Shown here piece after piece: positions 3,380 to 20,416 of a stretch of 64,000 bases of DNA; within the stretch, counting starts at the first letter, position 1, and each line of letters begins with the position of its first letter. The stretch comes from Bradyrhizobium sp. Ash2021. GTDB lineage: Bacteria > Pseudomonadota > Alphaproteobacteria > Rhizobiales > Xanthobacteraceae. The notes beneath the pieces were generated by a model. That model searched no databases. It saw only the letters and a list, made by a program, of their open reading frames with translations, and had not been told where the DNA came from. Made by a program: the position numbers and the translations under genes. The DNA is taken from assembly GCF_031202265.1 (NCBI RefSeq), contig NZ_CP100604.1:1240001-1304000 (forward strand), read 5' to 3'.

Positions 3380-4028
3380 CGCTTTCTCCTTAGGTTACTG
3401 CAACGAGCCGCCGCAAAGCTGCGTGCGTTTCGTGGAATGTGAAATCGTGGTGTGAAACCGAAAAGGGGGCGGTCTCTTAGGGTAGCGTACCTGCCGACAG
3501 CACTAGTACTGCTCGTTCGTCCCGAACGGTGACTTCGGCACATCCCGCAATTACATTCTACGAGACCGGACGCGCCTTAGAAATGGGTGTTTCGCCCAAG
3601 AGGCATAATGTCTCAGTTTGCTTAGAGCCTGAAGATCGGACCCCGGTGTCAGCAACTTCGCACTCCGGCCAACTGAATATGCAAGTCAGCGTCACTGACT
3701 GGTCCTGCGGCTGGTCGCGGTAAGTGCGCGGCCACGACCTACTGGCGTCCCGTGCGGAGGCGACGACTGCTGCTCCCATAGACGTCCGGAGTTGTGCAGG
3801 TTTTCGGATGCCGGCTTTGCGAACGTCTGCTAATTCGGGGAAAGCGGAAGCGACAACGACAGGGTCGAATAGACGCGAATGACCCACTCCGGAAGTCGCC
3901 CCTTCCGATGAACCTCCGCTGTCATGTCGCAAAATATTGGGGTCGCAAAACATATATTCCACTAAACCGCTGCGCGGTAGGGAGCATGCAGCAACCGTTC
4001 GAATAGGGAAGCGGGGGCCGAGGCCGGG
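3380..4028. other. intergenic stretch, no supported gene
   Basis: Frames of up to 134 codons exist on the minus strand (3558-3962) but show no domain, signal peptide or plausible start, and look like decayed intergenic DNA. No tRNA or hairpin terminator stood out. Confidence 0.5.
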
Positions 4029-4265
4029 TCAACGATCCTCCCGTGCTCTTCGGCGTGCCGCTTGGCCGGTGGCCTCGCTGAAGAGGTGGCGTGGGATGTT
4101 GATCAGCGCAAAACGTCGCCGTTCTTCAGCGTGCGTTTCAAAATCTGCCTCCACAAAAATCTCGACGGTTTCCTCGCTGGCATGAATTTCGACGCGTATA
4201 GGCGAGTCGCCCAAATCCACTTCGTATCGGCGACCATTCTTTCCCCGCATAATCGCGTGCGCCAT
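4029..4265 (-). CDS. conserved small protein of unknown function
   Basis: This 78-residue acidic protein starts MAHAIMRG and has beta-strand-like alternation (GRRYEVDLGDSPIRVEIHASEETVEIFVEADFE) followed by an Arg-rich tail. It starts one base after the stop of the upstream gene on the same strand, so the two are very likely co-transcribed. No family is recognised. The regular coding character and the coupling support a real gene. Confidence 0.55.
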   Translation of the reverse strand: MAHAIMRGKNGRRYEVDLGDSPIRVEIHASEETVEIFVEADFETHAEERRRFALINIPRHLFSEATGQAARRRAREDR

Positions 4266-4266
4266 T

Positions 4267-4530
4267 TCAGTTCTGCCTCTGGCCCTGCTTCTTTAGTTTC
4301 TTAACCCGATGCTTCTGATACCCGAGAACAGCAGGCACAAGTGGCATCGCGCGAGCCACCCGAACGTGGGTCAATGAGACGACAAGCGCTTGTCCGGTTT
4401 CATCGGAGCGCGACAGATGACACACGATACCGCCCTCGTCACCGGCATATGATACGTCCCACACGGTTTGGCGAATGCCGCTCACCGCAGTCACATTCTG
4501 CTCCTGGAGATAGTGGATCAGCGCCGGCAT
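4267..4530 (-). CDS. hypothetical protein, probably 5'-truncated
   Basis: The convincing coding part is about 87 residues from an ATG at 4530 and ends in a strongly basic tail (HRVKKLKKQGQRQN). The open frame continues upstream to 4725, but beyond about 4565 it merely reads the antisense of a methyltransferase remnant, so the original N-terminus was probably lost at that junction. Some upstream residues (VAALKAAAPFEVEL) may belong to the original protein. The gene is followed after one base by another small gene. The function is unknown. Confidence 0.45.
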   Translation of the reverse strand: MPALIHYLQEQNVTAVSGIRQTVWDVSYAGDEGGIVCHLSRSDETGQALVVSLTHVRVARAMPLVPAVLGYQKHRVKKLKKQGQRQN

Positions 4531-4569
4531 CAATTCGACTTCGAACGGCGCAGCTGCTTTCAACGCGGC

Positions 4570-4902
4570 GACAGCCTGCCCGCCTCCTCGCTGGATGCCG
4601 CCATCCTCGTGCACATGTATCACGAGGTCGCCCAACCCTATGCCTTTCTCTACAATCTTGCGCCCGCCTTGAAGCGGGGTGCGCGGGTCGGAATCGTCGA
4701 CCTCGAGCGTCCGACGCCGGAGCACGGCACGCCAATAAAGCTCTTGCGTTGCGAACTGACCGCCGTGGGCTATCGTGAGATCGCCACGTATCAGCTCGCG
4801 GGCGATGGCGGGTACCTCGCCGTGTTCTCTCCGCCGGAGGAAGCGGGCCGAAAATCTCCCCGGGACATCGTTGCGTGTGGGGATCGTGCCGGCACTCGCT
4901 GA
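4570..4902 (+). pseudogene. 3' remnant of a class I SAM-dependent methyltransferase
   Basis: From about 4570 the plus strand reads a typical methyltransferase C-terminal half: motif with LDAAILVHMYHEV, then LAPALKRGARVGIVDLERPTPEHG and GYREIATYQL. The SAM-binding glycine-rich motif I and everything upstream are missing, and no start codon suits the remainder. The fragment is convergent with, and overlaps, the end of the GT2 gene. It is best read as a leftover brought in by recombination near 4565. Confidence 0.7.
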
Positions 4903-5627
4903 TCCCTGACAAACGTCATCGACATGGACCAGGCCGCCTTGAAGCCGGCGACGGGATTGCCAGAGACCTTCGATACGCCGCCGATCCGGCTCCGCTGCCC
5001 GACAGCGATCTCCAGTGCCGGCAAGCGGGCGGCCGCTACCCGCATCAGCATTTCCAGGTTCCAGCCATAGGTCTCCTCCTTCATGCCGAGACGTATGAGG
5101 ACGTCCCGTCGGATGGCGCGAAACGGCGACAGGTCGGTAAAGCTCGCGCCATAGACGAGGCGCAGGAGCAGCCGGCCGACATGGGCCGCGAGAATCTGCT
5201 GCGGCGCCGGGCTACCGGGCTCGCGCCGACCGCGAACGCGCGAGCCGAGAACGAAGATGGCCCGCCCAGCAACGATCGGCGACACCAGATCAGGGATGAA
5301 TTCCGCAGGATCGCTGCCGTCGCCGTCGAGGAAGAGGAGAATGTCGGCGTCATCGCGCAGGGCGGCGATGCCCGCCTGGATGGCGCGACCGTAGCCACGC
5401 CGCGGCTCGACAATCACGCGGGCCCCGGCGGCTTCTGCGAACTCGGCCGTACGGTCTCGCGAACCGCCGTCAACAACGACGACCTCGCCCACATTCTGCG
5501 CCAGCACCGCAGTTACGACCTGCCCTATCGCCGTTTCCTCGTCGGGGCAGGGAATGATCGCGGAAATAACGGGCGTACGGAGCCATGCAGGCCGCCTCGA
5601 GCCGGTCTCGTCATTCACCGCGTTCAT
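4791..5627 (-). CDS. GT2-family glycosyltransferase (DPM1-like)
   Basis: This protein of 278 residues is a GT-A fold glycosyltransferase like dolichyl-phosphate mannose synthases and the transferase-2 group that clusters with radical SAM genes. Visible motifs are VISAIIPCPDEE, VVVDGGSRDRT and the metal/nucleotide-binding FLDGDGSD. The start at 5627 is chosen because it overlaps the radical SAM stop as ATGA; a longer frame starts at 5648. The last 35 residues (after FVRDQ) read the antisense of the methyltransferase remnant and are probably not original, so the C-terminus has been altered. The substrate is unknown. Confidence 0.85.
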   Translation of the reverse strand: MNAVNDETGSRRPAWLRTPVISAIIPCPDEETAIGQVVTAVLAQNVGEVVVVDGGSRDRTAEFAEAAGARVIVEPRRGYGRAIQAGIAALRDDADILLFLDGDGSDPAEFIPDLVSPIVAGRAIFVLGSRVRGRREPGSPAPQQILAAHVGRLLLRLVYGASFTDLSPFRAIRRDVLIRLGMKEETYGWNLEMLMRVAAARLPALEIAVGQRSRIGGVSKVSGNPVAGFKAAWSMSMTFVRDQRVPARSPHATMSRGDFRPASSGGENTARYPPSPAS

Positions 5628-6703
5628 AGGCTCCAGCGCAGGCCACAATTGGCGCAGCTCCTGGGCGGCTTGTCCGACAGGAGCGCCGCACGAAAGTCCC
5701 GGTACGCGGTCCCGTTCCAGATGTCATGCAAGGACTGCCGCCCTGCATGGCCCAGCGTGTAGTTGTCGTAGCCATGCTGCGAAAACGGCGCGATACAGCA
5801 GGGCAAGGCGCGGCCATTGGCCGTAAAGTACATCAACGACCAGGGCCGCCGACAGAGCGACCACGGCGAACCGTCGCCACTGCCCTTCAGACTTAACCCC
5901 GGCTCGGTCGCCGCGCCCGACGCGCTGAAGGTGACACCGAGGGAGCGCGCCAGATTCTCGGCCTGTTTCAGATAGATCGCTTCGCCCTCCGTCAGCCGTT
6001 CGAACAACGCCTGATCCGGCTGTGCTTTGCCAATGGCTGCTTCGTCGAAAAAAACGAGCCGTTGCAGATAGACCTCCTTGACACCGATCTCGGCGGCAAT
6101 TTTCACAAATGTCGGAAGCTCCTCTACAGTCTCTTTCAGGCCTGTGAGCCAAACGGAAACCTTGGGAGTGGTGAGTCCCTCCCGCTCCTGCAGCTCGCGA
6201 AACGCACGCACGTTGCGGATGATGCGACTGAAATAATCCTTGCCGCGGATCGCCTTGAAGCTCTCGCGGTTTGACGCGTCGAGCGACACACGCAGCTCAT
6301 CAAGCCCGGCGTCGATCAGCGCGCGGCCGTTGCGCTCACCTAGCACCGTTCCATTGGTGTTGAACAGGACGTAAACGCCGCGGTCCTTCAGATATCTGAC
6401 CATCCGGGGCAGGTTCGCGACTAGCATGGGCTCGCCGACGCCGTGCAGAACCGCCCGTGCGAGATCAGGAACCTGGTCGACAATCGACGCGAACAGATCC
6501 CAGCTCATGTCTGCCGGCGGCTCGAGCTCCTCGTAGGTGCGAGGACAGGTGGTGCACAGCAGATTGCAGCGGTTGGTCACCTCCAGATAAAGGCAGACCG
6601 GCGGACGCCGGGCGACCTCCGTGCGCTCGCCCGAGACCTGCTCGTGATAGCGGCGCGGATCGAAGGCCGCGCGAGTGCCTGGCGCTTCGCCTGAAATACT
6701 CAT
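5624..6703 (-). CDS. radical SAM/SPASM domain protein
   Basis: The 359-residue protein has the radical SAM cluster motif CNLLCTTC at residues 46-53, the following GVGEP and a (beta/alpha)-barrel pattern, and a C-terminal SPASM-like region with several cysteines (CRR, CCIAPF and CANC) that would bind auxiliary iron-sulfur clusters. SPASM enzymes modify peptides or small molecules by radical chemistry. The start at 6703 overlaps the stop of the upstream membrane glycosyltransferase as ATGA, which rules out the longer open frame to 7099. It lies in an operon with glycosyltransferases and a nucleoside phosphorylase. The substrate is unknown. Confidence 0.92.
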   Translation of the reverse strand: MSISGEAPGTRAAFDPRRYHEQVSGERTEVARRPPVCLYLEVTNRCNLLCTTCPRTYEELEPPADMSWDLFASIVDQVPDLARAVLHGVGEPMLVANLPRMVRYLKDRGVYVLFNTNGTVLGERNGRALIDAGLDELRVSLDASNRESFKAIRGKDYFSRIIRNVRAFRELQEREGLTTPKVSVWLTGLKETVEELPTFVKIAAEIGVKEVYLQRLVFFDEAAIGKAQPDQALFERLTEGEAIYLKQAENLARSLGVTFSASGAATEPGLSLKGSGDGSPWSLCRRPWSLMYFTANGRALPCCIAPFSQHGYDNYTLGHAGRQSLHDIWNGTAYRDFRAALLSDKPPRSCANCGLRWSL

Positions 6704-8012
6704 TGCACCAACTCCGCGTCTGCGGTCTGCGAATTGCGGCTTCTCCAGCTCACCAAGGCCCAAGCCAGCAAGAGACCTCCGAACAGAATTGACTTGGTCA
6801 CGATTCTCGGAATGTAGAGGTCCCAATCGAGTTGTTCGGACAGCAAGAGCGCACCGATCGAAACGACCCAGGTCGGCGCGGTGCCACACAGGGCAACGAA
6901 CGGCGTCACGACGAGAAAATACCAGGGGTAATTCGGCGACAACAACAAAAGCGTGAGGAGTAACAGCATGTTGATGTCGGCAAGAATCCCTTGAACAGGA
7001 GGACCAGCGCAGCCAGTACGAAATAAGCAGCAACATCACCTTGATGCGTGCCAAACACAAGCCGCCAGAGCGACAACGGCCAGAGATCATAGCCGGCACT
7101 GATCCCCTCTTCCGTCAGATAGCCTTTCGCCAGGTATCCGAGAACGCCCCAACCGATCGATAGATAAGGGAGATAACAAAGCACCACGACGGCGATCACG
7201 ACCAGCGGCATCTTGAGGTCCCATGGGCGCCAGATCGCAGCCAGCACCGGCGCCACGTAAGGTTTTACCAGCAGCGAAAATGCGATCAGAACGGATCCGC
7301 GGAGAGCGTGGCCGGTCAGGGCAATCCACAGGCCCAGCAGCATCAGCGCAACCATCAGCGCGTCGACGTGACCGCTGTTGGCGATTTCCCACAACGGAAG
7401 CGGATGCCAGAGATAGGCGATCACGCGCGTAATCGGGCGGTTTATCCGCCGCAGGAAGAGCATGATCAGTACAACAGTGAGAGCCTCGCACCCCAGCATT
7501 GCGAACCGCATCATGGTCACGCTTTCACCGAACCGCGTGACAATGAGGAAGAAAGACTGCGCCACCGGAGGATAGATGGTGACGGCAGAATCGACCCGGT
7601 CGATGTGAGGAAAGATCGCCTCGTCGCGCAGAAATGCCAGCGCCTGATTGGCCGGAAAATAACGGTATGGATTGATGCCGGCGGCTTGAACCTTGCCATC
7701 CCAGACATAGCGATAGATATCACTGGACAGAAGCGGATCGAACAGGAGCACATAGGCTCTCAGCACGATCGCAATTCCGAAGATAAGCCATAGCGCACGC
7801 CCGGTTCGCACGCGCTCGGCCAGGTGCGTTGCCATAATCGTCAGCAGGCCTGCGGCTACGGTCAGAGCGATGAAGGCATTGTCACCATAAGTCTCGAAAG
7901 CAAAAGGGGTCACCAGGGTCAGACCAACCAGGACAGCACCGACGCTCGCCAACAGATAAAATGGGAGCACCTCGATGGCGTAGCGCATCGGTCGACCGGG
8001 TTGACTGGTCAT
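6700..8012 (-). pseudogene. GT-C membrane glycosyltransferase, frameshifted
   Basis: Two overlapping frames together make one polytopic membrane protein of about 435 residues. The first frame (from 8012, MTSQPGRP, or 7988) carries about nine hydrophobic segments and the motif SSDIYRYVWDGKVQAAGINPY typical of polyprenol-phosphate-dependent GT-C/DUF2029-type enzymes. The second frame supplies the missing end, starting near 6978 (MLLLLTLLLLSPNYPWYFLV) and stopping at 6700. The switch lies around 6970-6990 and needs a one-base change. It overlaps the radical SAM gene by ATGA. Either the gene is recently broken or the base call is wrong. Confidence 0.75.
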
Positions 8013-8032
8013 GGACCCTGGCATTAGCGGCC

Positions 8033-8737
8033 TTAAGGGCTTATCTGCGGCGCGGCTGCGTTGAGAAAGGTCCGGCTTGCCGGAGCAAATCCACCAGCAC
8101 GAAAGCGGGTCGAATCGCCGGCCAGTTCGTCCTGCAACCATCGCAACGTTTGCATGTCGTCGACATCATACCATTCGGGAAGCAGTGTCGTGGCAAGCCC
8201 GATTTCGGCGGCGCGCTCGCATGTAGCCCGAGCCACGGTTTCCGTTCCCCATGCGATCTGCGTGAACAGATGCTGATGTGGACGTTTCAGGCCGATGAGG
8301 TAATAGCCGCCGTCGCTTGCCGGCCCGACCACCATCCTGTCCCCCGGCTCGCGCAGGGCTTCGACGGCCTGTACCAGGAAGCGGGTTGGCAAGGTCGGGC
8401 TGTCGCCATTGACCAGCAGGACACCGTCATGTCCGGCATGCAGGAACGCGCGCATCGCGCCAAGCAGCACGTACCCCAGATCATCACCGGTTTGCAGCAA
8501 CAGTCCGAACCCCGCGGGAAGCAACTGATGCATGATGTGTTCGGCTCCCGCAGGAGCGTAGACGCCGTAGCCGCGCCTGCCGAGCGCCTCCGGTACCGCC
8601 TCGATTGCCGCCGCAACATCGCGCAGAAAGCAAGCGGAGAGCTCCGATGCGGCCACCTCGCCAATGGCGGTCGCGAGCCGCGTCTTTGAGCGGCCGGGCT
8701 GCGGCGCCTTGCGTATGATCCCGATCGCCGCGCTCAC
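8033..8737 (-). CDS. DUF2064 / TIGR04282-type transferase (rSAM-associated transferase 1)
   Basis: This 234-residue protein is a nucleotidyl- or glycosyltransferase-like enzyme of the DUF2064 family. It shows the N-terminal nucleotide-binding signature (RKAPQPGRSKTRLA), GDSPTLP and PASDGGYYLIGL. The family was named for its association with radical SAM genes; some members are assigned to arsenosugar synthesis. The start is GTG at 8737, overlapping the upstream phosphorylase stop as GTGA. About 20 bp separate its stop from the membrane glycosyltransferase start. It probably acts with the neighbouring GT2 enzyme on a shared product. Confidence 0.88.
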   Translation of the reverse strand: MSAAIGIIRKAPQPGRSKTRLATAIGEVAASELSACFLRDVAAAIEAVPEALGRRGYGVYAPAGAEHIMHQLLPAGFGLLLQTGDDLGYVLLGAMRAFLHAGHDGVLLVNGDSPTLPTRFLVQAVEALREPGDRMVVGPASDGGYYLIGLKRPHQHLFTQIAWGTETVARATCERAAEIGLATTLLPEWYDVDDMQTLRWLQDELAGDSTRFRAGGFAPASRTFLNAAAPQISP

Positions 8738-9610
8738 GGCAGGAACCGGGACCGCAGGCGATCGGCGGCGATCGCAATCAACTGGAGCGCGTCATGGCTG
8801 CCGTCCGCTTCACCCTTTTCAAAATCCCCATCAATGCGCCCCATTTGATTTGTCACATGGGCAAAACACAGGACGGGCTTTTGTCGGACTTGCGCAAACG
8901 CGTAAAGCGCGGCGGCTTCCATTTCGGACTGCCACCAGGTTCCTTTCGCGCATAGCGTCGATCGCTGGCTGGGTTTCACGGAACGGCGCGTCTGTTGTCC
9001 AGGTTGCGCCCGTGAGAACGGGCACGGGAAATCTCTCGAATACGCCATTGAGCGCCGAGATCAATCCGGGATCGGCATGCGAATAGTCCGACGCGGCCAT
9101 GTAATGATAGCTGGTGCCTTCGTCGCGCAGCGCGCGTTCGATGATGACGAAATAGGGCGGCGGGCGTATCGGCACGATCTGTCCGGAGGACGTGACGCTG
9201 ATCAACAGTTTGCAGCCCGATGCGAACATTTCCTCGGCGATCAGCACCGCGTAAGAGGCGCCGACGGCGCAGCCGACAATTCCGAAATCAATCCCGTTGC
9301 GGCTGAAAGTGTAGAGCTGCGTATGGTAGCAGGCCCACCCCGATTCCAGCCGGGCCTCGCTGCCGGCAATGAGACTGCGCACCATGTCGCCGTCAGGGTC
9401 GAGGATGCAGATGTCCGGGACGCGGGAGTCCGCAATCCGCTTTTGTCTGCGGGCTTCGCGCAGCAGATTTTCCGGCGTAAATGCGGACGGCTGCGTGTAA
9501 TGCTTTTGCGCAAGGATGGGCGGCACTCCGCCGTCATTGACCGCCATCACCAGACAGACCTCGTTACGCCGTAGCCGGTCATTGGTAGCGTTCTCCACGT
9601 CAGTGGGCAA
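8734..9610 (-). pseudogene. nucleoside phosphorylase family gene, frameshifted
   Basis: The frame from 9610 gives a PNP/UDP-phosphorylase fold protein (VGCAVGASYAVLIAEEMFASGCKLLISVTSSG) down to AIDAMRERNLVAV. The rest of the domain, including the nucleoside-binding SEMEAAALYAF and the conserved DGDFEKGEADGS, continues in another frame and stops at 8734. The switch lies near 8925-8945. The total of 877 bp is not a multiple of three, as expected for one indel. The stop overlaps the GTG start of the DUF2064 gene. In arsenosugar routes a phosphorylase removes adenine; here the substrate is unknown. Confidence 0.8.
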
Positions 9611-9904
9611 GCGCCGTCAATTGGCTGCCGCTCCGCAGGTTGGAGCCGGAGACAACAGCGCCTCCGGCATCATGAAAAAACGACCCGAATGATGTAACAA
9701 GTGCCTTTCGACGGCTCAATGACTGGGAATTGATCACAAGCCCAATGCCCGCAGCCACTGCAGGTATGGCTCGGGTTGGCCATGTGCGAAGTTGATCGTG
9801 TTGATCCGACGGAACGGATCGCCTAGCATCTGTCTTGAGGAAGGCGGGTCCGATATTTTCAACGTGGGCAGTGACGTTGTGGCGTAAGGATCTCGAGGGC
9901 TGTC
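9611..9904. promoter_or_regulatory. divergent intergenic region, shared promoters
   Basis: About 294 bp separate the minus-strand operon from the plus-strand acyl-CoA-dehydrogenase-like gene. No gene is seen. Divergent promoters must lie here, but no operator could be defined by eye. Confidence 0.4.
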
Positions 9905-11050
9905 ATGAATCACGAGACCGCAGTTTCGAATGCCAGGGAAATCGCAGATCGGATCCTCGCGCCGGCGGCAAGGCAAAACGACAAGGATGCTCGATTTTCG
10001 TCCGAGGCAATCGCGGCGCTCGGTTCGGCCGGATTGCTGGGGATTATGCTGCCCGCCGAAGTGGGCGGCTCTGCCCTGGGACCGCGGACCCTCGCTGCGG
10101 TCGTCACGACGCTCGCAGAAACGGACGCGTCCGCCTCGATGGTCTATTTGATGCACATGTGCGGCACCGCGACGATCGCGGCGGCCCGTTCGGGCGTCCC
10201 GGTGGCGCAGACGCTGAAGGACATTTCGGCAGGCCGGCATCTCACCACGCTGGCATTCAGCGAAGCTGGATCGCGCAGCCACTTCTGGGCGCCCGTATCG
10301 CGAGCGAAGCGCAATGGAGCCAACGTCCGCCTCACAGCCCAAAAATCCTGGGTTACGAGCGCCGGTCACGCGCAAAGCTATGTTGTCTCGGCCCTCGCTC
10401 CTGATGCGACGGGTCCAACCGATTCCACCCTTTACCTGTTGGCCAGCAGTACGCCCGGACTGTCAGTTGCCGGCCCCTGGGATGGTCTTGGGATGCGCGC
10501 CAACGCGTCCGCGCCGATGATCCTCGAGGATTGCGAAGTCGAGCCTGGTCTGCAACTGACCGACGACGGCGCCGGCTTCAAGGCGATGCTGGAGATCGTG
10601 CTTCCACTGTTCAACCTCGGGACCTCCGCGGTCGCGCTGGGTCTTTGCCGGGCCGCAGTGGCGGGAACTGCGGCTCATCTCAAGAGCGCGCGCTTCGAGC
10701 ATTTGGGCCAGACCCTTGGAGAGAGCCTGCCGACACTCCGCGCGCAGCTTGCGACGATGCAGATCGACACTGACGGGCTCGCGGCGCGTGTCGACGATCT
10801 CGTCGATCACCTCGAACGCCCCCGAGAGACCACCATGCTGCGTGTGCTCGAGGCCAAGGCGGCGGCAGGTGACACTGCGATCGCCGTCACCTCAGCGGCG
10901 ATGCGGGTGTGCGGAGGCGCTGCATTTTCCAGGCATTTGGCCATCGAGCGATTGTTCCGCGATGCTCATGCCGGCGCTGTCATGGCGCCGACGGGCGATG
11001 TTCTGCGCGAGTTCATCGGCAAAGCCGTCCTGGGAATACCGCTGTTCTGA
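9905..11050 (+). CDS. acyl-CoA dehydrogenase-like flavoprotein
   Basis: The 381-residue product has the three-domain acyl-CoA dehydrogenase layout: helical N-terminal domain (EAIAALGSAGLLGIMLPAEVGG), middle beta domain (LTTLAFSEAGSRSHFW and LTAQKSWVTSAGHA) and C-terminal helices (MRVCGGAAFSRHLAIERLFRDA). The usual C-terminal catalytic Glu motif (YEGT) is not seen; the matching place reads DAHAGAVMAPTGD. That suggests a divergent member, perhaps closer to flavin-dependent monooxygenases such as the DszC/SfnB group than to true fatty acyl-CoA dehydrogenases. It is followed after 80 bp by a PhnD-like gene, so the two probably share a pathway. Confidence 0.85.
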   Translation: MNHETAVSNAREIADRILAPAARQNDKDARFSSEAIAALGSAGLLGIMLPAEVGGSALGPRTLAAVVTTLAETDASASMVYLMHMCGTATIAAARSGVPVAQTLKDISAGRHLTTLAFSEAGSRSHFWAPVSRAKRNGANVRLTAQKSWVTSAGHAQSYVVSALAPDATGPTDSTLYLLASSTPGLSVAGPWDGLGMRANASAPMILEDCEVEPGLQLTDDGAGFKAMLEIVLPLFNLGTSAVALGLCRAAVAGTAAHLKSARFEHLGQTLGESLPTLRAQLATMQIDTDGLAARVDDLVDHLERPRETTMLRVLEAKAAAGDTAIAVTSAAMRVCGGAAFSRHLAIERLFRDAHAGAVMAPTGDVLREFIGKAVLGIPLF

Positions 11051-11130
11051 GCGCGAGAGCGCTGCGCCGCCAGGGATCGTTCGTTCGCGTTTGATGGCGG
11101 TCAAATGGTCAGAGAAAGCGAGAAGCAACC

Positions 11131-11970
11131 ATGAGCCGGACGATCTGGGTAGGTGCCGTCGCATATGATCCGAAGGTGGTCGGCATCTGGGAGGGCATGC
11201 GACGGTATTTTCACGAGGAAGCGCATCTGCCTGTCGAAGTCGTGTTGTTTCAGAGCTACGAGGCCCAGGTCGCCGCTCTCCTGGCCTTGCCCGGTGAGCC
11301 GCTGCCGCACATTGATATCGGGTGGAATACAAACCTCGCCTATATCCAGTCCGATGCCTGGAGCGACAAGCGCTGCCGACCTATCGCGATGCGCGATACC
11401 GACGTGGGCTGGATGACCAAGATCGTCGCCGTCACGGGTGGACCGGTTGTCAGGCTTGCCGATCTTAAAGGCCGCACCTTGGCCCTCGGCAGCCGCGACA
11501 GCGGCCATGCGGCAATCCTTCCGGTTTATTTTCTGCAGCGGGAGGGACTGGTCGAGGGGAAGGATTACCGATCGCTGCGCTTCAACTCCGACCTCGGCAA
11601 GCACGGCGACACGGGGACAAGCGAGTCCGATGTCGTTCGCGCAGTCCTCGACGGCCGCGCCGACGCCGGCGCAATCGGCAGCCCGTTCTGGAATGCCGTG
11701 CACACCGAGCGTCTGGTACCGGAAGGAGCGCTAACCGAGATCTGGACCTCGCGGCCCTATAATCACTGCATGTTCACGGCCCGGCCCGATCTGGACCCCG
11801 CGTTGGAGCAGCAGTTCGCCAAAGCCCTTTTCGGGATGAGCTACGACAACCCGACGCATCGTCCGGTGCTCGAGGCGGAAGGCCTGCGCCAATGGATAGC
11901 GCCGCAGCTTGAGGCGTATGCTGAGTTGCGGGAAGCGTCGGCGCAGCAGGGCTTTCTAAAGCGACCCTGA
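11131..11970 (+). CDS. PhnD/SsuA-like substrate-binding domain protein without signal peptide
   Basis: This 279-residue protein resembles phosphate/phosphonate-type periplasmic binding proteins (LADLKGRTLALGSRDSGHAAILPVYFL and DVVRAVLDGRADAGAIG). It starts MSRTIWVGAVAYDPK directly in the fold and lacks an export signal, so it is probably cytoplasmic, or its leader is missing. No permease or ATPase genes lie nearby. Such solitary cytoplasmic members may act as sensors or enzymes rather than in transport. It follows the flavoprotein gene with an AGAGAAAGCGAGAAG stretch before the ATG. Confidence 0.75.
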   Translation: MSRTIWVGAVAYDPKVVGIWEGMRRYFHEEAHLPVEVVLFQSYEAQVAALLALPGEPLPHIDIGWNTNLAYIQSDAWSDKRCRPIAMRDTDVGWMTKIVAVTGGPVVRLADLKGRTLALGSRDSGHAAILPVYFLQREGLVEGKDYRSLRFNSDLGKHGDTGTSESDVVRAVLDGRADAGAIGSPFWNAVHTERLVPEGALTEIWTSRPYNHCMFTARPDLDPALEQQFAKALFGMSYDNPTHRPVLEAEGLRQWIAPQLEAYAELREASAQQGFLKRP

Positions 11971-11976
11971 GCGCAG

Positions 11977-13011
11977 TCAGGCGCAATTGAAGATCATTGC
12001 CAACCGGCGCTGATGCTCAGATTCGCGATCGAAGGCGCGGCGCACGGCTGCGAAGGACTCGGCGAGTGGAAAGATGTCGCGGCTGACCAACAGGTCGTTA
12101 TCCTCGGCTCCGACCGGATGCCAAAAGACACCTTCTGCCGTAATCGTCACCTCGGGAACCAGGTCCGCCCTTGCCAATGCAATGCCCTGCCTAGCGGAGC
12201 CCCGCAGCGCAATTCGTCTGATTACGCGATTTTCCTCGCTCACATGATGGGCGTCAACGAAACTGCGGAATTCCTCGGCCTCCGCGTCAGTCGACACGGT
12301 CGCCGCCAACCGCACGCGGAATCCTTCGGCGCGGGCTCGCTCGATTCCCTCCCAGGTGCGTGCCCATGTCCCCTTTCCACGATGGCTCTCGTGACGTTCC
12401 GGCGTCGGGCTATCGAGGCTGATCTGCAGGGTTACGCGCTCGCGCGGCAAGGCCCGTAGCGTTGCGAGCCGAGCTCCGGCAAACAGCATGCCGTTGGTGA
12501 GCACCGTGGTCGACGCCGCCGCAGCGCACGCGGCAAGGATCTCGCCGATATCCGGCAGCACGAACGGCTCGCCGCCGGTCACAAAAATTTCGCTGACGCC
12601 GAGCTCAGCCGCCTCGACTGCGATCCGTCGCACCCGCTCGATACCAAGCGCCCGCCGCGGCGCCTTGGGCGATGAGCGCACGCAGCAATAGTCACAGCTC
12701 AGGTTGCAGTCGAAATTGGTGTAAAGCCATAGTCGAGAGCCGACAGGCCGGTCTCCTCCGACATTCTCGGGAGCCTCTCCGTATCGGAGCACCCATCGGG
12801 TGCGACCTTGTTCAATGGCTGTGTCGACCAGGCTGTTGCGGGTGAAGCGACACCATGCCTCGAGTTCGGGGCCGATGCCTGGATCGCGGCTGGTCACGGC
12901 GACGAGATCGCCCTTACGGCCGCGACGCAGCGCAGCTATCAAATCCGGCAGGAGGCCCGAGGCAAATGTCTTGGTGCCAGCGTCGAGTTCAACGTTCGCA
13001 TTCGTCCTCAT
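11977..13011 (-). CDS. radical SAM protein with N-terminal TusA-like domain
   Basis: The 344-residue protein is a fusion. Residues 1-78 follow the pattern of TusA sulfur carriers (VELDAGTKTFASGLLPDLIAALRRGRKGDLVAV, then EAWCRFTRNSLVD), but the catalytic CPxP cysteine is missing. Residues 95-300 are a radical SAM core with CNLSCDYC at 102-109 and TGGEP. There is no SPASM cysteine cluster; the protein ends soon after a lone Cys. It is convergent with the PhnD-like gene, 6 bp apart. Related genes occur near DUF2064/GT2 transferases, which matches this neighbourhood. The substrate is unknown. Confidence 0.85.
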   Translation of the reverse strand: MRTNANVELDAGTKTFASGLLPDLIAALRRGRKGDLVAVTSRDPGIGPELEAWCRFTRNSLVDTAIEQGRTRWVLRYGEAPENVGGDRPVGSRLWLYTNFDCNLSCDYCCVRSSPKAPRRALGIERVRRIAVEAAELGVSEIFVTGGEPFVLPDIGEILAACAAAASTTVLTNGMLFAGARLATLRALPRERVTLQISLDSPTPERHESHRGKGTWARTWEGIERARAEGFRVRLAATVSTDAEAEEFRSFVDAHHVSEENRVIRRIALRGSARQGIALARADLVPEVTITAEGVFWHPVGAEDNDLLVSRDIFPLAESFAAVRRAFDRESEHQRRLAMIFNCA

Positions 13012-13687
13012 GTATTAATCCATGGTACTCTCAACGTTCGGTCTCTACCGTACCGGTTTTGCGCCAGAAACGATCTCACCGGAACGCTGTGAACACGACC
13101 AATCTCCAACGAAAATGCATGAAAATCAACGATCGTATTCTTTCCTGTCGCCCATAACGGCTTGGTTGCAGTTCGGTTCCTGCCGAGCCCACCAATGAAA
13201 CCAGCCAAGCTTTTCTCGGCCGCCCCCTTCGCGGACCGATTGGTTCCAAATTGCATCAGAGCTGATGAATCATGCCGACATTATTCCGGTTATCGGTTCG
13301 CGGCAGAACTGACTGGGATTCCCAGGTTCTCAATCCTACCGTGACATTCTACGCAGACTAAGAACGACTCGATTTGAAGTTCTAAAAATGCCTCGACTTC
13401 CGCATCCGAGGTAAATTCATTTAATAAATCGATCGACACTCGGTTAGCCAGAATTCCCAACGGTGAAAAACCCGTTAGGATCTTTTTGTATTTACGGACG
13501 CGGCCTTATCGGAAACCGAGTACCGCAATCGCTCTCGAGGCGGCGAGACGTCCCTGTGCTTGTCTACTAGAAGCGCTGTGGCGGCTAGTGGATGAACTTT
13601 ACTCGCGGCGGTTCGCGGTTACTCACTCAACACCAAACAACGGAAGAACTGAAAGCACTTAATGATGGACTGGAGGACGTACTTTGC
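13012..13687. other. intergenic stretch left of the IS5-type element
   Basis: No supported gene. Base composition is more AT-rich than its neighbours in the second half. One clean minus-strand frame (13290 to about 13510) without a good start codon is discussed as a finding. Confidence 0.45.
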
Positions 13688-14990
13688 CTAGCAGTTTGCT
13701 GAAGAACCCCCTCGCCACGGTGGGAACTTGGTGATTCACTTTATCATCTCGAATCGCTGGGGACGAGCATGCGTGGCAGGTTTGCGGATCAGGGCGGGAT
13801 GTTTTCGTACATTTCGCCGGAGGCCCGGGTGCCTCCCAACCATCCTTTGCGGAAGATCCGGGTGCTGGTCCGGGATGTCTTGAGTGAGTTAAACCGCAGC
13901 CTTGGGAGACTTTACGCCAGCGATGGGCGTCCCTCGATTCCTCCCGAGCAATTGCTGAGCGCATTGTTGCTGCAGGTGTTCTACGGCATTCGGTCGGAAC
14001 GCCAGTTGATGGAGCAACTGAACTATAATCTTTTGTACCGCTGGTTTGTGGGGCTTTCGCCCGACGACCCGGTCTGGGACCCGACCACCTTTACCAAGAA
14101 CCGCGACCGGCTGCAGAACGGCGAGGTGTTTAAGAAGTTCATGACCAGACTTCTGAACCATCCGCAGGTCAGGCCGCTGCTGTCGGACGAGCATTTCTCG
14201 GTGGATGGAACGCTGATCGAAGCCTGGGCTTCACAGAAGAGCTTTCGTCCCAAGGACGGCAGCGGCGACGATGATGACGGCGCGAACTTCCATGGCCAGA
14301 AGCGCAAGAACGACACCCACGCGAGCACCAGTGACCCCAACAGCCGGCTTTACCGCAAGGCGGCCGGGCGGGAGGCGAAGCTTTGCTATATGGGCCATGC
14401 CACCATGGAGAACCGGCATGGGCTGGCGGTAGCCGGCATGGTTACACACGCCAATGGTACCGCCGAGCGCCGAGCATCGGAGATCATGCTAAAGGCCAAA
14501 AGCAAAGCTGCCGGCCACCGCATCACGGTCGGTGAGGACAAGGCGTACGATACCACCGATCATGTGGCCAATCTTCGGGCCATCAACGTGACACCGCATG
14601 TGACGCAGAACCAGGCCGTCACCAAAACCGGCAAGACCCGCAACAGCGCCATCGACGAACGAACCACGCGGCATCCAGGGTACGGCATGTCGCAATCGCG
14701 CCGGGCGATGATCGAGTGCATCTTCGGCTGGGGCAAGCAGCACGGTACCATGCGCAAGACCAAACATCGCGGCATCGGTCGCGTCGCCGCCAACTTCCTG
14801 CTCAATCTGATCGCCTATAACCTGATCCGCATCCCCAAGCTGATGGCCGCCTAGCGGCGCCAACGAGCAGCGCCCGCGTGCAGGTCAACAAAACTGCATC
14901 AAGCCAGCCAACACAACACATGAAACCCGGATCGACCGTCCCATTGAGACAAAGAAACTCAACTTTCCAAGTTCTTCAGCAACCTGCTAG
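13688..14990 (+). mobile_element. IS5-type insertion sequence with inverted repeats and CTAG target duplication
   Basis: The element of about 1.3 kb is bounded by 16-bp inverted repeats (left cagtttgctgaagaac at 13692, right gttcttcagcaacctg ending at 14986; one mismatch). CTAG sits directly outside both ends (13688-13691 and 14987-14990), matching the 4-bp YTAR target preference of part of the IS5 family. It holds one full-length transposase and looks able to move. The matching ends and duplication suggest fairly recent insertion. Confidence 0.88.
13769..14854 (+). CDS. IS5-family DDE transposase
   Basis: The intact 361-residue transposase begins with the conserved N-terminal domain (MFSYISPEARVPPNHPLRKIR) and carries the DDE fold: SVDGTLIEAW for the first Asp, VGEDKAYDTTDHV for the second and RAMIECIFGWGKQHGTMRKTKHRG for the Glu region. 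This enzyme cuts and joins the element's ends. It is the only gene between the inverted repeats. No frameshift or missing catalytic residue is seen. Confidence 0.95.
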   Translation: MRGRFADQGGMFSYISPEARVPPNHPLRKIRVLVRDVLSELNRSLGRLYASDGRPSIPPEQLLSALLLQVFYGIRSERQLMEQLNYNLLYRWFVGLSPDDPVWDPTTFTKNRDRLQNGEVFKKFMTRLLNHPQVRPLLSDEHFSVDGTLIEAWASQKSFRPKDGSGDDDDGANFHGQKRKNDTHASTSDPNSRLYRKAAGREAKLCYMGHATMENRHGLAVAGMVTHANGTAERRASEIMLKAKSKAAGHRITVGEDKAYDTTDHVANLRAINVTPHVTQNQAVTKTGKTRNSAIDERTTRHPGYGMSQSRRAMIECIFGWGKQHGTMRKTKHRGIGRVAANFLLNLIAYNLIRIPKLMAA

Positions 14991-15203
14991 GGCCGACCGA
15001 CGTCGCGGTTTGAAGCTCGCGCTGCGGCTCCTCGTTTCCGTGGATAGCTAGGAGCGCCAGTATCAGCTGATCTTTGCGCTGGAGCTGAACCGGGCCGAGC
15101 GCGAATTCTTGACTGGCCAGCTGTTGGTTGCAGACGAGCGATTGACGGCGCTGTCAAATCGCGCCACGACAACGAGCGCTCCGGCGCCGTATTGACGGAT
15201 ATC

Positions 15204-15415
15204 TCATGCCTCGTCCTCCCCATCCCCGTTCATGTTTTTTTTAAGCAGGGGGTTCTCCAGGGTGAGATCGGCCACGACCTCCTTCAAGGCGGAGGTCTCA
15301 CGGCGAAGGTCCTTTACTTCGCCGGAGGTTGCGTCGCGCGCCGTATCGCCCGCCAGCCGGCGCTTGCCGGCCTCCAGGAACTCCTTGGACCAGCCGTAAT
15401 ACATCGAGGCAGCGA
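15204..15415 (-). pseudogene. IS3-family orfA remnant
   Basis: The minus strand reads the C-terminal end of an IS3-type OrfA (YYGWSKEFLEAGKRRLAGD, then a leucine-zipper-like ALKEVVADLTLENPLLKK). The N-terminal helix-turn-helix is missing because the sequence is joined to an ISL3 remnant at about 15415. No orfB follows. It is a dead fragment. Confidence 0.75.
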
Positions 15416-15416
15416 T

Positions 15417-15717
15417 GATGGAGCCAGCACCCTTCGGCGAAGCGCTCAGTAAAGATTTGACGCCCGCACAGGACGGCGTCGCCGCGGAATCGGCGGGCAA
15501 TCACAAGGAGCTGTACGATCCGCCCCGAAAGCGGCAGATCGGTCACGCGTCGCCGATACCGGCTATGGACACGCCGGGAAACCGTTCCGCACGATGGGCA
15601 CAGACCAACGATTCCGGATGCCCGGACCGCAATAATGGCTTTATCACCCTCGTAGTACGCACTCTCTACAACAAACCCACGCGGCACCAGACTGGAGCGG
15701 TGGAGTGCCTGCTGCAT
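15417..15717 (-). pseudogene. ISL3-family transposase 5' remnant
   Basis: This is the N-terminal part of an ISL3 transposase, with the characteristic zinc-binding stretch (GIVGLCPSCGTVSRRVHSRYRRR) and LCGRQIFTERFAEG. The frame loses homology near 15417 where it meets the IS3 fragment, and the catalytic domain is absent. It marks the site as a hotspot of IS insertion and deletion. Confidence 0.78.
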
Positions 15718-15883
15718 GGCACTGATTCTCCCCCAATCAAAGCGCCACACATCCCACAAACTGTATCAAAAGTGAGTCAGAGCCATTTTTCGACAGCATT
15801 CACACTCAGGTCTGCGAAACCTCATCGAGTGTCCGCTCTATTTGCCGAGCCTCTGCCGAGGCGCGCTTGCCCGTCAACGGATT

Positions 15884-17347
15884 TCAGAAGTCGACGGTCG
15901 CCGTCAACCCGACGACGAAAGTGTTGGGAATGACTCCGGTTCCTCCCGGCCGCTGGATATATTGCAGATTAGGACGCAGCAGAAACCACGGCGTTACTTG
16001 CGCACCATAGTTGATCTCATAGATCGTCTCCTCGGTTGCCACGTTGACACTTCCCGGTTTCACGACGTTCAGGCCCTGCTGATACAAGACGGAATTGCCG
16101 TTCAGGTGCACACGGGCGACAGCCACGGAGATATAGTCATCGTCGCGACTGGCGACGCCCTTTTGCACCAGACCAACTGCTCCTGTCCATGTGTACTGGG
16201 ACGTTCTCTGGTCGCCAAATGCGATGACGCCGAAAACCGTGACACCGCGATTGTGCGAGCCGGGTTCCCGGTAGACCATTTGCTCGCCTTGCAGCCATCC
16301 GCCCCAACGTCCGAGGTCGGTCAACATGGGCAGTCCCGTGATGCCCGCATTATTGCCATTGATGTCGCGGAGAACGTCGGCGTAGCTGGATGAATCGTAG
16401 TAGGCGCCAATTTTGTACTTTCCCGGCAAGCCGCCGAGGCCGCTTGCCGGCAGCCAGCCGAATTCGATGGGCACAAGGACTCCGGTGCCATGAAAGCCCA
16501 GGTCGAAGCCGGACCCCGGACTGCCCGCATTAGGATTAACCTGGTAAATGCCGGTTTGAACGTAGGACTCTGAAAAGCCTTGAATCTTGACGCGGCCGCC
16601 CCAAGCCCCGGTCGGGTAATTGAACGCTACAATGTTTGTGCTCAGAGCGGGTGTGTGACCGCAATGCACGCCAGATTGAAAGTAGCAGTAGAGCTCACTG
16701 GTGTTGTAGTCGTCACCAACTGGAGAAAATCCCACCTTGAGCTCGATGAGGTCGGACCACAGTTGCTGAGTATAGTACATTTCGGAGATGCGCGCATTCT
16801 GCCCCGCTCCGAAAACCTCCTGGGGCGATTGCAGGCTACCGATAATAGGCTTCAAATCTGTCCCGACGCGGTCGTTCAGGGTTATGACCGCCTGCGCTCC
16901 CTGCAACCCGGCCAGCTTATCGAGATCCAGCTTGGCTCCCAGGGAGACCTGTTGCGTATACGCGGCCCCCTTATTTTGTCCGCCGATCGGGTTCGCTGCG
17001 CTCTCCGAAACGTACTTCAGCTCAACGTCTACGCCCCGATCGTGGAGTTGCGTACGTAGCCCACCCCAGTCGCCGGTCATCTTGTCTTGATAGGTAACAT
17101 TTTCCCGCGGCTTACCTGCAGTCCTGGTCGTTCCCGATGGGCTCGGCTTGAAAACTGGATCCGTTTGAGTGGGGGATTGGGACGGATTGGCAAAGCTACG
17201 ATTGTCGTCGGCAATGACGTCATTGTCGGCTGACCGCGTTACTTGCGCATACGCCATCGTTTCGCCCAATAACAAAATGCCAATAACGATCGACGATGCC
17301 GCGGCAATACCGGGTGTGCGAGACCAATTCTGTCGGAATATTTTCAT
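15884..17347 (-). CDS. OprB-family carbohydrate porin
   Basis: The 487-residue protein is an outer-membrane beta-barrel of the OprB carbohydrate-selective porin family. It has a signal sequence (residues about 12-35, ending AYAQ), the family-typical MTGDWGGLRTQLHDRGVDVELKYVSE start of the barrel, and the C-terminal terminal strand FVVGLTATVDF ending in Phe, as required for outer-membrane assembly. The start at 17347 follows a GGAG site; a longer frame to 17506 is less likely. It stands alone. A second family member lies at 22227-23639. Confidence 0.9.
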   Translation of the reverse strand: MKIFRQNWSRTPGIAAASSIVIGILLLGETMAYAQVTRSADNDVIADDNRSFANPSQSPTQTDPVFKPSPSGTTRTAGKPRENVTYQDKMTGDWGGLRTQLHDRGVDVELKYVSESAANPIGGQNKGAAYTQQVSLGAKLDLDKLAGLQGAQAVITLNDRVGTDLKPIIGSLQSPQEVFGAGQNARISEMYYTQQLWSDLIELKVGFSPVGDDYNTSELYCYFQSGVHCGHTPALSTNIVAFNYPTGAWGGRVKIQGFSESYVQTGIYQVNPNAGSPGSGFDLGFHGTGVLVPIEFGWLPASGLGGLPGKYKIGAYYDSSSYADVLRDINGNNAGITGLPMLTDLGRWGGWLQGEQMVYREPGSHNRGVTVFGVIAFGDQRTSQYTWTGAVGLVQKGVASRDDDYISVAVARVHLNGNSVLYQQGLNVVKPGSVNVATEETIYEINYGAQVTPWFLLRPNLQYIQRPGGTGVIPNTFVVGLTATVDF

Positions 17348-17756
17348 ATGAAACTCCAACGAATACTCAAACTGGAAGGGGTTCGCGCGAATTGGAGAGT
17401 TCAGCGAGCTTACACCGAAGTGCAAAGCCCGCCAATTGCGGACCTTGCGAGGGTGGTCGCTGTGGAGATTGCCCTGGCGCTGGAGCGGTGAAACGGCGTC
17501 ATTCAAAGCCGCGCAAATCGACGAAACCGGTTCCGTTCAACCGACGCCGGCCGAGCTTTTCGCCGTTAGCGGCGCGCGACCATTATTATTTTGACCACAA
17601 CAACAGTGCGATCTGGCCGTGGCGCATCGCCAAGACGCTTAGTGCCATCAAGATCCGTCAGCGATCCGACTCCCCAAGACACTAAACTCTAATTTAATGG
17701 CGAGCCCGCAGCGCTTTACTATGTGAAAAAACGGTAATGGCTCTGAGGATCGAGAT
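17348..17756. other. divergent intergenic region between porin and DUF2231 gene
   Basis: No supported gene; open frames here have no domain features. Promoters for both flanking genes are expected. The last 70 bp before the DUF2231 gene are AT-rich (around aaactctaatttaatgg). Confidence 0.45.
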
Positions 17757-18191
17757 ATGCAGCACGACACGATAAATGAGACGTCCTTCGCGCGCGATGC
17801 CAGCACGCAGTCAACGGCCAAAGCCGACAGACAAGCGATTCATCGAATCTTGCTTCCGTTTTCCGTCGCGTATTTCACGGCCGCTTTTGTGACCGATCTG
17901 CTCTATTGGCGGACTGCCGAGGTGATGTGGCAGAGGTTTTCCGTCTGGCTGATAGTGGCTGGTCTGATCGTGGCCGGCTTTGCGGTGATTGCTGCCGTGA
18001 TCGACCTTGCACGTGGTACGCAAAGGCCGGCGCGGCTCCACGCGCTCGGCTACGCAGTTGGTGTCTCGCTCTCACTGATCAATGTCTTCATCCACAGCCG
18101 CGACGGGTATACCGCAGTCGTACCGACCGGCCTGATGCTTTCCGGGGTCGCCGTAGTCATTCTGTTGGCGACGGCCTCGGCTGGAGCTTGA
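17757..18191 (+). CDS. DUF2231 membrane protein
   Basis: The 144-residue protein has four hydrophobic segments (LLPFSVAYFTAAFVTDLLYW, SVWLIVAGLIVAGFAVIAAVIDL, ALGYAVGVSLSLINVFI and GLMLSGVAVVILLATASAG) in the pattern of the DUF2231 family of small membrane proteins. It precedes the sorbosone-dehydrogenase-like gene by 28 bp, a frequent pairing, and is probably its membrane partner in periplasmic electron transfer; that role is inferred from the pairing only. Confidence 0.85.
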   Translation: MQHDTINETSFARDASTQSTAKADRQAIHRILLPFSVAYFTAAFVTDLLYWRTAEVMWQRFSVWLIVAGLIVAGFAVIAAVIDLARGTQRPARLHALGYAVGVSLSLINVFIHSRDGYTAVVPTGLMLSGVAVVILLATASAGA

Positions 18192-18219
18192 CGGACCCTC
18201 ATCGCGTTGGAGCAGACAC

Positions 18220-20286: not shown

Positions 20287-20375
20287 GCTGCTTGCGCAGC
20301 GCCTCCATGAGGTCGACCACTCCTTCAAGCGGTGGTGATGGCACGAAGCGTTGTTGTCGTCTCCTACGCACCCTA

Positions 20376-20394: not shown

Positions 20395-20416
20395 GTAGCG
20401 AGATGGAGTTGATGAC

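What the first reader, a model, noticed from the sequence alone, without database searches (positions are those of the whole stretch)
4791..13011. Unusual radical SAM/transferase cluster with a degenerate TusA-radical SAM fusion
Two radical SAM proteins, a DUF2064/TIGR04282-type transferase, a GT2 and a GT-C glycosyltransferase, a nucleoside phosphorylase, a divergent acyl-CoA-dehydrogenase-like flavoprotein and a cytoplasmic PhnD-like protein occur together. The left five overlap start-to-stop or lie within 20 bp, so they form one operon. Known parallels (arsenosugar-type pathways use a radical SAM enzyme, a phosphorylase and a DUF2064 transferase) hint at a radical-built, glycosylated small molecule. 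The gene content does not match any pathway I can name.
Basis: partly seen in the sequence, partly recalled or inferred. Interest (0 to 1): 0.72.

Follow-up and report, generated by a model that had tools for sequence, protein, structure and literature searches.

The report
Mobile radical SAM and glycosyltransferase gene cluster
A set of eight genes in a soil bacterium, partly broken in this copy but intact elsewhere in the same genome and largely found again in a distant phylum, may build an unusual sugar by radical chemistry and attach it to something outside the cell membrane.

Summary
The named gene families are real, but this copy is partly broken: phosphorylase and GT-C are frameshifted, the GT2 tail differs, and a ninth gene (methyltransferase) is a stump. 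The genome, inferred to be Bradyrhizobium, holds an exact second copy and an intact third (about 80% identical, same order). Both halves adjoin in 18 of 20 Bradyrhizobium-type loci; all 23 of 195 sampled genomes with the Rv1681-type gene also have the SPASM gene. tRNA-Met fragments flank some copies, suggesting island cargo. The right half resembles the function-less Rv1679-Rv1681 set. The left half (DUF2064, GT-C, radical SAM/SPASM, GT2, sometimes a phosphorylase) occurs without Rv1681 in other bacteria, often beside a molybdopterin oxidoreductase. Both halves, without the phosphorylase, meet again on a Miltoncostaea plasmid in another phylum, with GT-C fused to GT2 and DUF2064 to NUDIX. Best reading: a radical-made sugar is nucleotide-activated, loaded on polyprenyl phosphate and transferred outside the membrane; product unknown. 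The arsenosugar parallel meets one of four tests; a selenium link is suggestive elsewhere but not borne out in Bradyrhizobium.

The parts
4576..4899 (+). C-terminal stump of a class I methyltransferase (residues 143-250 of 250)
   Evidence: tblastn with the intact copy, 81% identity
4791..5648 (-). GT2 glycosyltransferase; homologous part 4905-5642, tail after residue 235 of 245 differs
   Evidence: PF00535; intact homologue aligns with dolichol-P-mannose synthase 5mlz (15-218) and ArnC 9bhc (13-219), though the best solved hits are glucosyl-3-phosphoglycerate synthases over about 14-130
5627..6706 (-). radical SAM/SPASM enzyme, open frame
   Evidence: PF04055 + PF13186; CxxxCxxC and SPASM cysteines kept in at least 47 of 48 sequences
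6703..7964 (-). GT-C (GT87-like) glycosyltransferase, frameshifted at about 6984
   Evidence: two tblastn pieces 6703-6984 and 6984-7964
8033..8737 (-). DUF2064 / TIGR04282 nucleotidyltransferase-like enzyme, open frame
   Evidence: 157.4 bits, cut-off 134
8737..9616 (-). nucleoside phosphorylase-family gene, frameshifted at about 8926
   Evidence: PF01048; two frames
9905..11050 (+). Rv1679/FadE16-like flavoprotein lacking the usual catalytic Glu
   Evidence: best match NF049984, below cut-off; MAPT in place of YEGT
11131..11970 (+). Rv1680-like SBP-fold protein without signal peptide
   Evidence: best match NF049985, below cut-off; PF12974
11977..13011 (-). Rv1681-type radical SAM protein with N-terminal TusA-fold domain (about 12784-13011)
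   Evidence: NF049973 485.7 bits, cut-off 380; TusA fold match
13153..13194 (+). remnant of a tRNA-Met 3' end (86% over 43 columns)
   Evidence: blastn against the intact tRNA-Met; reversed control 0
3811..24291 (.). segment present a second time from C1:622462 with 1 mismatch in 20,481 bp

Best explanation
A horizontally moving cluster for an envelope-directed glycoconjugate. Inferred steps: (1) the radical SAM/SPASM enzyme makes or alters a sugar-like unit in the cytoplasm; (2) where present, the PNP-family enzyme phosphorolyses a nucleoside, either supplying a sugar 1-phosphate or clearing 5'-deoxyadenosine; (3) DUF2064, of CofC/MobA-like kind, activates the sugar as a nucleotide sugar; (4) GT2 loads it on polyprenyl phosphate; (5) GT-C transfers it to an acceptor outside the membrane. 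The Rv1679-Rv1681-like module (flavoprotein without the usual base, cytoplasmic SBP-fold protein, second radical SAM enzyme) adds a further modification in Bradyrhizobium and Miltoncostaea and was not found with the core in the other genomes searched. Shown here: gene content, recurrence, two fusions, family assignment, purifying selection. Not shown: substrate, product, acceptor, or any activity.
For: Gene order DUF2064 - GT-C - rSAM - GT2 recurs in Bradyrhizobium, Xanthobacteraceae, Methylobacterium, Rhodopila and Granulicella loci; DUF2064, GT-C, rSAM and GT2 are seen in 25, 18, 26 and 23 of the 26 loci L020-L045 (these were fetched by the rSAM). In Miltoncostaea GT-C and GT2 are one 651-aa protein and DUF2064 is fused to NUDIX; there DUF2064 also passes the CofC Pfam cut-off (26.4, cut-off 22). 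GT2 aligns over its length with DPM synthase and ArnC; GT-C is GT87. The SPASM enzyme's solved relatives include BtrN and cytosylglucuronate decarboxylase, which act on cyclitol or sugar substrates (recalled). dN/dS 0.02-0.18 over 11 segments between window and intact copy. All 23 of 195 genomes with Rv1681 over its cut-off also have the SPASM enzyme (found in 24).
Against: No enzyme of the set has a characterised close relative that I found. PNP is near full length in only 6 of the 18 Bradyrhizobium-type loci with both halves, so it is not essential there, and none is annotated in the Miltoncostaea block. GT-C was not found in 8 of 26 core loci (some contigs are short). The best solved relatives of GT2 are glucosyl-3-phosphoglycerate synthases over a shorter stretch, and its best NCBIfam match is 98 of 325 bits. 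The SPASM enzyme's best NCBIfam matches are metalloenzyme maturases far below cut-off (147.5 of 380), and its solved relatives also include PqqE, MoaA and a lipid synthase. The 23-of-23 co-occurrence is one inherited or mobile island, not 23 independent events; only one plasmid record holds both halves outside Bradyrhizobium.
Confidence: 0.42

Rival explanations
1. A sulfur- or selenium-containing small molecule (thio/selenosugar type): selenophosphate or a sulfur donor feeds the glycosyl chemistry; the SBP-fold and TusA-fold parts handle the chalcogen.
For: selA, selB, selD and tRNA-Sec beside the Miltoncostaea block; SelD in the flank of the core in 3 of 26 loci (L025, L040, L045), the next mapped gene upstream of DUF2064 in L040; TIGR04553 selenate-type SBP over cut-off in L025 and L045, and TIGR04553 is the window SBP's second-best match (86.7 of 250); SelD in 13 of 26 core genomes against 60 of 289 class genomes (Fisher p=0.001 with 13 of 25 after dropping the Bradyrhizobium L044).
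Against: SelD in only 6 of 195 Bradyrhizobium genomes and in 2 of the 24 that carry the SPASM enzyme (p=0.16); not near the cluster in any of 22 Bradyrhizobium copies, including the whole window. The TusA domain lacks an early Cys. Core genomes are not independent of each other (two of the three SelD loci are Methylobacterium) and include Acidobacteria, unlike the class background.
Confidence: 0.2
2. Maturation of a molybdenum oxidoreductase or another redox protein: the SPASM enzyme and the glycosyltransferases modify a periplasmic enzyme or its partner.
For: Mo-oxidoreductase (PF00174) beside the core in 12 of 26 and cytochrome b561 (PF01292) in 11 of 26 loci; the SPASM enzyme's nearest NCBIfam models are W_rSAM_matur and rSAM_Geo_metal, both below cut-off.
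Against: Neither partner was found in 22 Bradyrhizobium copies or in the 30-kb Miltoncostaea stretch.
Confidence: 0.15
3. Futalosine-like logic: SBP-fold enzyme, two radical SAM enzymes and a PNP-fold enzyme build a C-nucleoside or quinone-like aromatic compound that is then glycosylated.
For: Same fold inventory as MqnA/D, MqnE, MqnC and MqnB (recalled).
Against: No Mqn family among the families listed for the SBP or the PNP piece; PNP is near full length in only 6 of 18 loci; the core occurs in genomes without Rv1681.
Confidence: 0.08
4. Arsenosugar biosynthesis, as hinted by the first reader.
For: DUF2064 passes the TIGR04282 cut-off.
Against: TIGR04283, ArsS and arsenite methyltransferase models all far below cut-off.
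Confidence: 0.04
5. Two unrelated modules that merely share an island in Bradyrhizobium.
For: Rv1681 was not found in 25 of 25 non-Bradyrhizobium core genomes, several of them small MAGs; a Mycolicibacterium plasmid has the trio and no SPASM-enzyme match.
Against: Both modules sit interleaved in one block in Miltoncostaea, a different phylum.
Confidence: 0.11

Closest known systems
Rv1679-Rv1680-Rv1681 set (NCBIfam NF049984, NF049985, NF049973)
   Same: All three are the best matches in the window; the three are adjacent on a Mycolicibacterium plasmid
   Different: Only NF049973 passes its cut-off; in the window the radical SAM gene is on the other strand and the trio adjoins the glycosyl core; I found no function for either
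ArnC/ArnT-type polyprenyl-phosphate sugar transfer (also DPM synthase + GT-C)
   Same: GT2 aligns with ArnC and DPM synthase and is partnered with a GT-C, fused to it in Miltoncostaea
   Different: Radical SAM enzyme and DUF2064 in the operon instead of the Arn sugar enzymes (recalled); the GT-C matches GT87
Arsenosugar biosynthesis families TIGR04282/TIGR04283/ArsS/ArsM
   Same: TIGR04282 cut-off passed
   Different: The other three not met
Selenoneine pathway SenA-SenB-SenC (only listings and abstract starts seen: PMC10891094, PMC10702425)
   Same: Sugar chemistry, with a selenophosphate synthetase gene nearby in some lineages
   Different: No SenA/SenB test was run here; SelD is missing in 22 of 24 Bradyrhizobium carriers

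Membership tests
Rv1681 family radical SAM (NF049973) | curated score cut-off 380 | tested here: met
   485.7 bits; the Miltoncostaea homologue, 225.5, does not meet it
Rv1679 FadE16 (NF049984) | curated score cut-off 600 | tested here: not met
   429.9 bits, the best of the 16 families listed
Rv1680 SBP-like (NF049985) | curated score cut-off 400 | tested here: not met
   309.5 bits, the best of the 5 families listed
Acyl-CoA dehydrogenase | catalytic Glu in the C-terminal YEGT motif (motif recalled) | tested here: not met
   MAPT aligned with YEGT of solved enzymes; MAPT in all 22 sequences aligned, including Mycolicibacterium and Miltoncostaea
TusA sulfurtransferase domain | TusA fold | tested here: met
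   3lvj_C TM 0.81, rmsd 2.3 A, on a model whose N-domain pLDDT is 65-90; Pfam score below cut-off
TusA sulfurtransferase domain | active-site Cys of the CPxP motif (recalled) | tested here: not met
   No Cys before residue 54 in the window protein
Arsenosugar biosynthesis | TIGR04282 transferase | tested here: met
   157.4, cut-off 134
Arsenosugar biosynthesis | TIGR04283 transferase | tested here: not met
   53.7, cut-off 182
Arsenosugar biosynthesis | ArsS radical SAM (TIGR04167) | tested here: not met
   39.2, cut-off 300, for the Rv1681-type enzyme; not among the best 25 of 45 families shown for the SPASM enzyme
Arsenosugar biosynthesis | arsenite methyltransferase | tested here: not met
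   PRK11873 38.2, cut-off 263, for the intact neighbour
Polyprenyl-phosphate sugar transfer | GT2 of DPM/ArnC type plus a GT-C | tested here: inconclusive
   GT2 aligns along its length with DPM synthase and ArnC but scores best against GpgS over a shorter stretch; GT87 cut-off met
Polyprenyl-phosphate sugar transfer | polyprenyl phosphate as carrier | not testable with these tools
   needs an enzyme assay
Selenium metabolite pathway | selenophosphate synthetase in carriers | tested here: inconclusive
   13 of 26 core genomes but 2 of 24 Bradyrhizobium carriers
Futalosine-type pathway | MqnA/MqnD/MqnB family match | tested here: not met
   none among the 5 families listed for the SBP or the 1 listed for the longest PNP piece; the intact PNP was not scanned

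The most novel reading that the evidence does not exclude
An undescribed pathway in which radical SAM chemistry, probably with sulfur or selenium, makes a new sugar that is nucleotide-activated by DUF2064, carried on polyprenyl phosphate and placed outside the membrane; the orphan Rv1679-Rv1681 trio is a tailoring module of it, and the system has crossed phyla as a mobile cassette.
Probability: 0.2. Interest if true: 0.78.

Novelty: new variant of a known kind. Interest (0 to 1): 0.58.

Why it matters
It gives the Rv1679-Rv1681 families, for which I found no function, and the loosely named TIGR04282 a shared genomic setting in two phyla, with gene fusions that suggest an order of steps. The intact copy lies in a Bradyrhizobium-type genome and relatives lie in Methylobacterium, groups that can be worked on, so the product becomes findable by comparative metabolomics.

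Tried and rejected
Arsenosugar pathway: rejected. RiPP precursor: 450 small ORFs in 19 loci were compared and the 25 most shared listed. They fall at four places: just beyond the tRNA-Met fragment, upstream of the Rv1681-type gene; in the stretch of the last neighbour gene near 12-15 kb; at the PNP site, where several are joined N- and C-terminal PNP ends (for example L009, L013) or antisense to them; and beside the flavoprotein start (L004 5807-5989, L008 6529-6705), which I did not follow up. In the first place L007 has a 10-base gap, which speaks against a peptide gene; I kept no candidate but have not excluded one. Selenoprotein in the Miltoncostaea block: stop codons were read through in a script and judged by eye only; no clear case, not a systematic test. 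Rfam at gathering threshold: nothing in the window; in L067, L082, L083, L024, L032 and L084 only two tRNAs and tRNA-Sec. AlphaFold of the SBP-fold protein: mean pLDDT 41.5, not used; the radical SAM model is weak outside its N-domain (mean 58.7). Rv1681 beyond the genus: 3 of 297 order genomes (E<=1e-60) and 3 of 398 phylum genomes (E<=1e-50), each time the same three of the window's genus; but protein P0020, 89% identical, is labelled Steroidobacteraceae MAG. Literature (PMC holdings only): two or more of Rv1679/Rv1680/Rv1681 0 papers; DUF2064 0; arsenosugar with radical SAM and glycosyltransferase 0, with glycosyltransferase and ArsM 0; Rv1681 14; four of five terms around radical SAM/SPASM/glycosyltransferase/molybdopterin/gene cluster 11; FadE16 7; two of Rv1680/Rv1678/moeX/DsbF 1; TIGR04282 and related 2; selenosugar terms 10. 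Only listings with titles and abstract starts were seen; no paper was opened.
Full report
What is there. The window is base 1240001-1304000 of contig C1 of a 9.7 Mb genome in 2 contigs. The genus is inferred to be Bradyrhizobium: the nearest loci are mostly named Bradyrhizobium, and the same-genus genome G006 holds a contig of the same length (254,874) as the Bradyrhizobiaceae MAG behind L007.

This copy is damaged. Against an intact copy, the PNP lies in two frames, GT-C in two frames with residues 330-342 missing, GT2 matches only residues 1-235 of 245, and a methyltransferase keeps only residues 143-250 of 250. Both radical SAM genes, DUF2064, the flavoprotein gene and the SBP-like gene are open. 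The same genome has two more copies: one from C1:622462 that shares 20,481 bp with the window (3811-24291) with one mismatch, and one with all genes open at about C1:5055219-5064705 (L067), 79-83% identical in DNA in the aligned pieces and in the same order. Between window and that copy dN/dS is 0.02-0.18 over 11 gene segments with dS 0.6-2.2 (the PNP C-terminal piece is only 63 codons), so the genes were long under purifying selection and the breakage looks recent. The two exact copies agree on the frameshifts, though both could carry one assembly error.

It recurs. One scan returned 45 loci. Of the 20 Bradyrhizobium-type loci (L001-L019, L044; two are MAGs not named to that genus), 18 hold both halves side by side; L017 is a degenerate piece, and L044 has the left half with Rv1681 on another contig. 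In 195 sampled genomes of the genus, 23 have Rv1681 over its cut-off and 24 have the SPASM enzyme at E<=1e-40; all 23 have both, and the extra one (G116) is 81% complete. These are related genomes and one island, so the tiny p-value is not independent evidence. PNP is near full length in 6 of the 18 loci (L001, L004, L006, L012, L016, L018), with remnants in some others. A methyltransferase match lies in 19 and a DoxX-type match in 18 of the 22 Bradyrhizobium copies compared (the 20 loci, L067 and the window).

It looks mobile. A 17-48 base match to the 3' end of tRNA-Met(CAT) lies beyond the Rv1681-type gene in 10 of 22 copies (L004, L005, L006, L008, L009, L012, L013, L014, L018, window) and beyond the other end in 4 (L004, L005, L012, L014), in one direction relative to the cluster; L005, L013 and L014 have a further fragment 2.8-3.1 kb farther out; the reversed sequence gave none. 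The other 12 copies, including the intact L067, show none. In L012 the far copy is the whole tRNA gene; an intact tRNA-Met stands at C1:7500754 in this genome. I did not test for an integrase.

Two modules. Outside Bradyrhizobium the left core stands without Rv1681: among 26 genomes reached through L020-L045, Rv1681 at E<=1e-40 occurs in 1, the Bradyrhizobium L044 (many are small MAGs). There the core lies beside a molybdopterin oxidoreductase in 12 of 26 and a cytochrome b561 in 11 of 26 loci (several contigs are short); neither was found in the 22 Bradyrhizobium copies or in the Miltoncostaea stretch. Two annotated Methylobacterium plasmids show cytochrome b, Mo-oxidoreductase, hypothetical, DUF2064, GT87, radical SAM, GT2, aminotransferase. 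The right trio stands on a Mycolicibacterium plasmid beside CcdA, a disulfide oxidoreductase, another radical SAM and a methyltransferase, and that plasmid gave no SPASM-enzyme match.

They meet again. Among 72,556 plasmid records, 3 match Rv1681 and 3 match the SPASM enzyme; one is in both lists. On that Miltoncostaea oceani plasmid (Actinomycetota) one block reads DoxX, CMD, Rv1681-like radical SAM, GT-C::GT2, DUF2064::NUDIX, flavoprotein, SBP-like, DUF2515 protein, SPASM enzyme; no PNP is annotated. Identities of the core proteins to the intact Bradyrhizobium ones are 32-47%, of DoxX 27%. Its Rv1681-like protein lacks the N-terminal domain (277 aa, residue 17 aligned to residue 90), and its trio members score below the NCBIfam cut-offs (225.5, 377.8, 233.5), though those families are their best matches. 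This block is the main reason to treat both modules as linked; it is one case.

What the parts suggest. GT2 aligns along about residues 13-219 with dolichol-phosphate-mannose synthase and ArnC, while its best solved hits are glucosyl-3-phosphoglycerate synthases over about 14-130. GT-C is GT87. DUF2064 has one strong solved relative, called a putative nucleotide-diphospho-sugar transferase (3cgx); its match to CofC is weak in the window (26.9 of 105) and over the Pfam cut-off in Miltoncostaea. Together they read as nucleotide activation, polyprenyl loading and outward transfer. The SPASM enzyme's solved relatives are BtrN, PqqE, a tetraether lipid synthase, cytosylglucuronate decarboxylase and MoaA. 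The intact PNP's nearest solved relative is 5'-methylthioadenosine phosphorylase (1.8e-7), closely followed by a purine nucleoside phosphorylase. The flavoprotein carries MAPT where acyl-CoA dehydrogenases carry YEGT, in all 22 sequences aligned across Bradyrhizobium, Mycolicibacterium and Miltoncostaea. The Rv1681-type protein has a TusA-fold N-domain without an early Cys.

Selenium, for and against. For: Sec genes and tRNA-Sec beside the Miltoncostaea block; SelD near the core in L025, L040 and L045, with a TIGR04553 transporter protein in L025 and L045; SelD in 13 of 26 core genomes against 60 of 289 in the class. Against: SelD in 2 of 24 Bradyrhizobium carriers, 6 of 195 overall, and none near the 22 copies. 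So selenium may belong to one version of the chemistry, or be a neighbour by chance; the Bradyrhizobium data do not call for it.

Verdict. A real, recurrent and apparently mobile cluster with a partly broken copy in this window. Its likeliest role is radical-assisted synthesis of a sugar that is carried on polyprenyl phosphate. The product is unknown, and none of the titles and abstract starts I was shown (searches returned nothing) mentions the cluster.

Noticed in passing
window 3811-24291 and from C1:622462: A 20,481-bp segment is present twice in the genome with one mismatch; its right end falls inside a transposase-like ORF at 24173-24838 (IS91-like by recall).
   Followed up: partly
window 4066-4465: This stretch is about 83-84% identical to sequences on 23 Bradyrhizobium plasmid records, at the broken left edge of the cluster.
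   Followed up: no
L004 2469-2511 and 15755-15802; L014 3284-3316 and 12535-12581; L012 14254-14331: Direct repeats of the tRNA-Met 3' end bracket the cluster in some Bradyrhizobium genomes, like attachment-site footprints.
   Followed up: partly
L008 about 3260-3397 and the same place in other loci: A conserved stretch of roughly 80 bp lies between the tRNA-Met fragment and the Rv1681-type gene; open in one frame in some loci, gapped in L007; perhaps a promoter or attachment region.
   Followed up: no
L082 11770-14933: GT-C::GT2 and DUF2064::NUDIX fusions in Miltoncostaea oceani.
   Followed up: yes
L040 5823-6918: SelD is the next mapped gene upstream of DUF2064 in an unclassified proteobacterial MAG; its open frame of 803 aa suggests a fusion protein.
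   Followed up: partly
L083 1997-2812 and 10577-12160: A deiodinase-like protein and a radical SAM enzyme closest to TrsS/Tes (below cut-off) flank the Rv1679-81 trio on a Mycolicibacterium plasmid.
   Followed up: no
L067 13207-13959: The neighbouring methyltransferase appears to start with a signal-peptide-like hydrophobic stretch, odd for a SAM-dependent enzyme (by eye).
   Followed up: no
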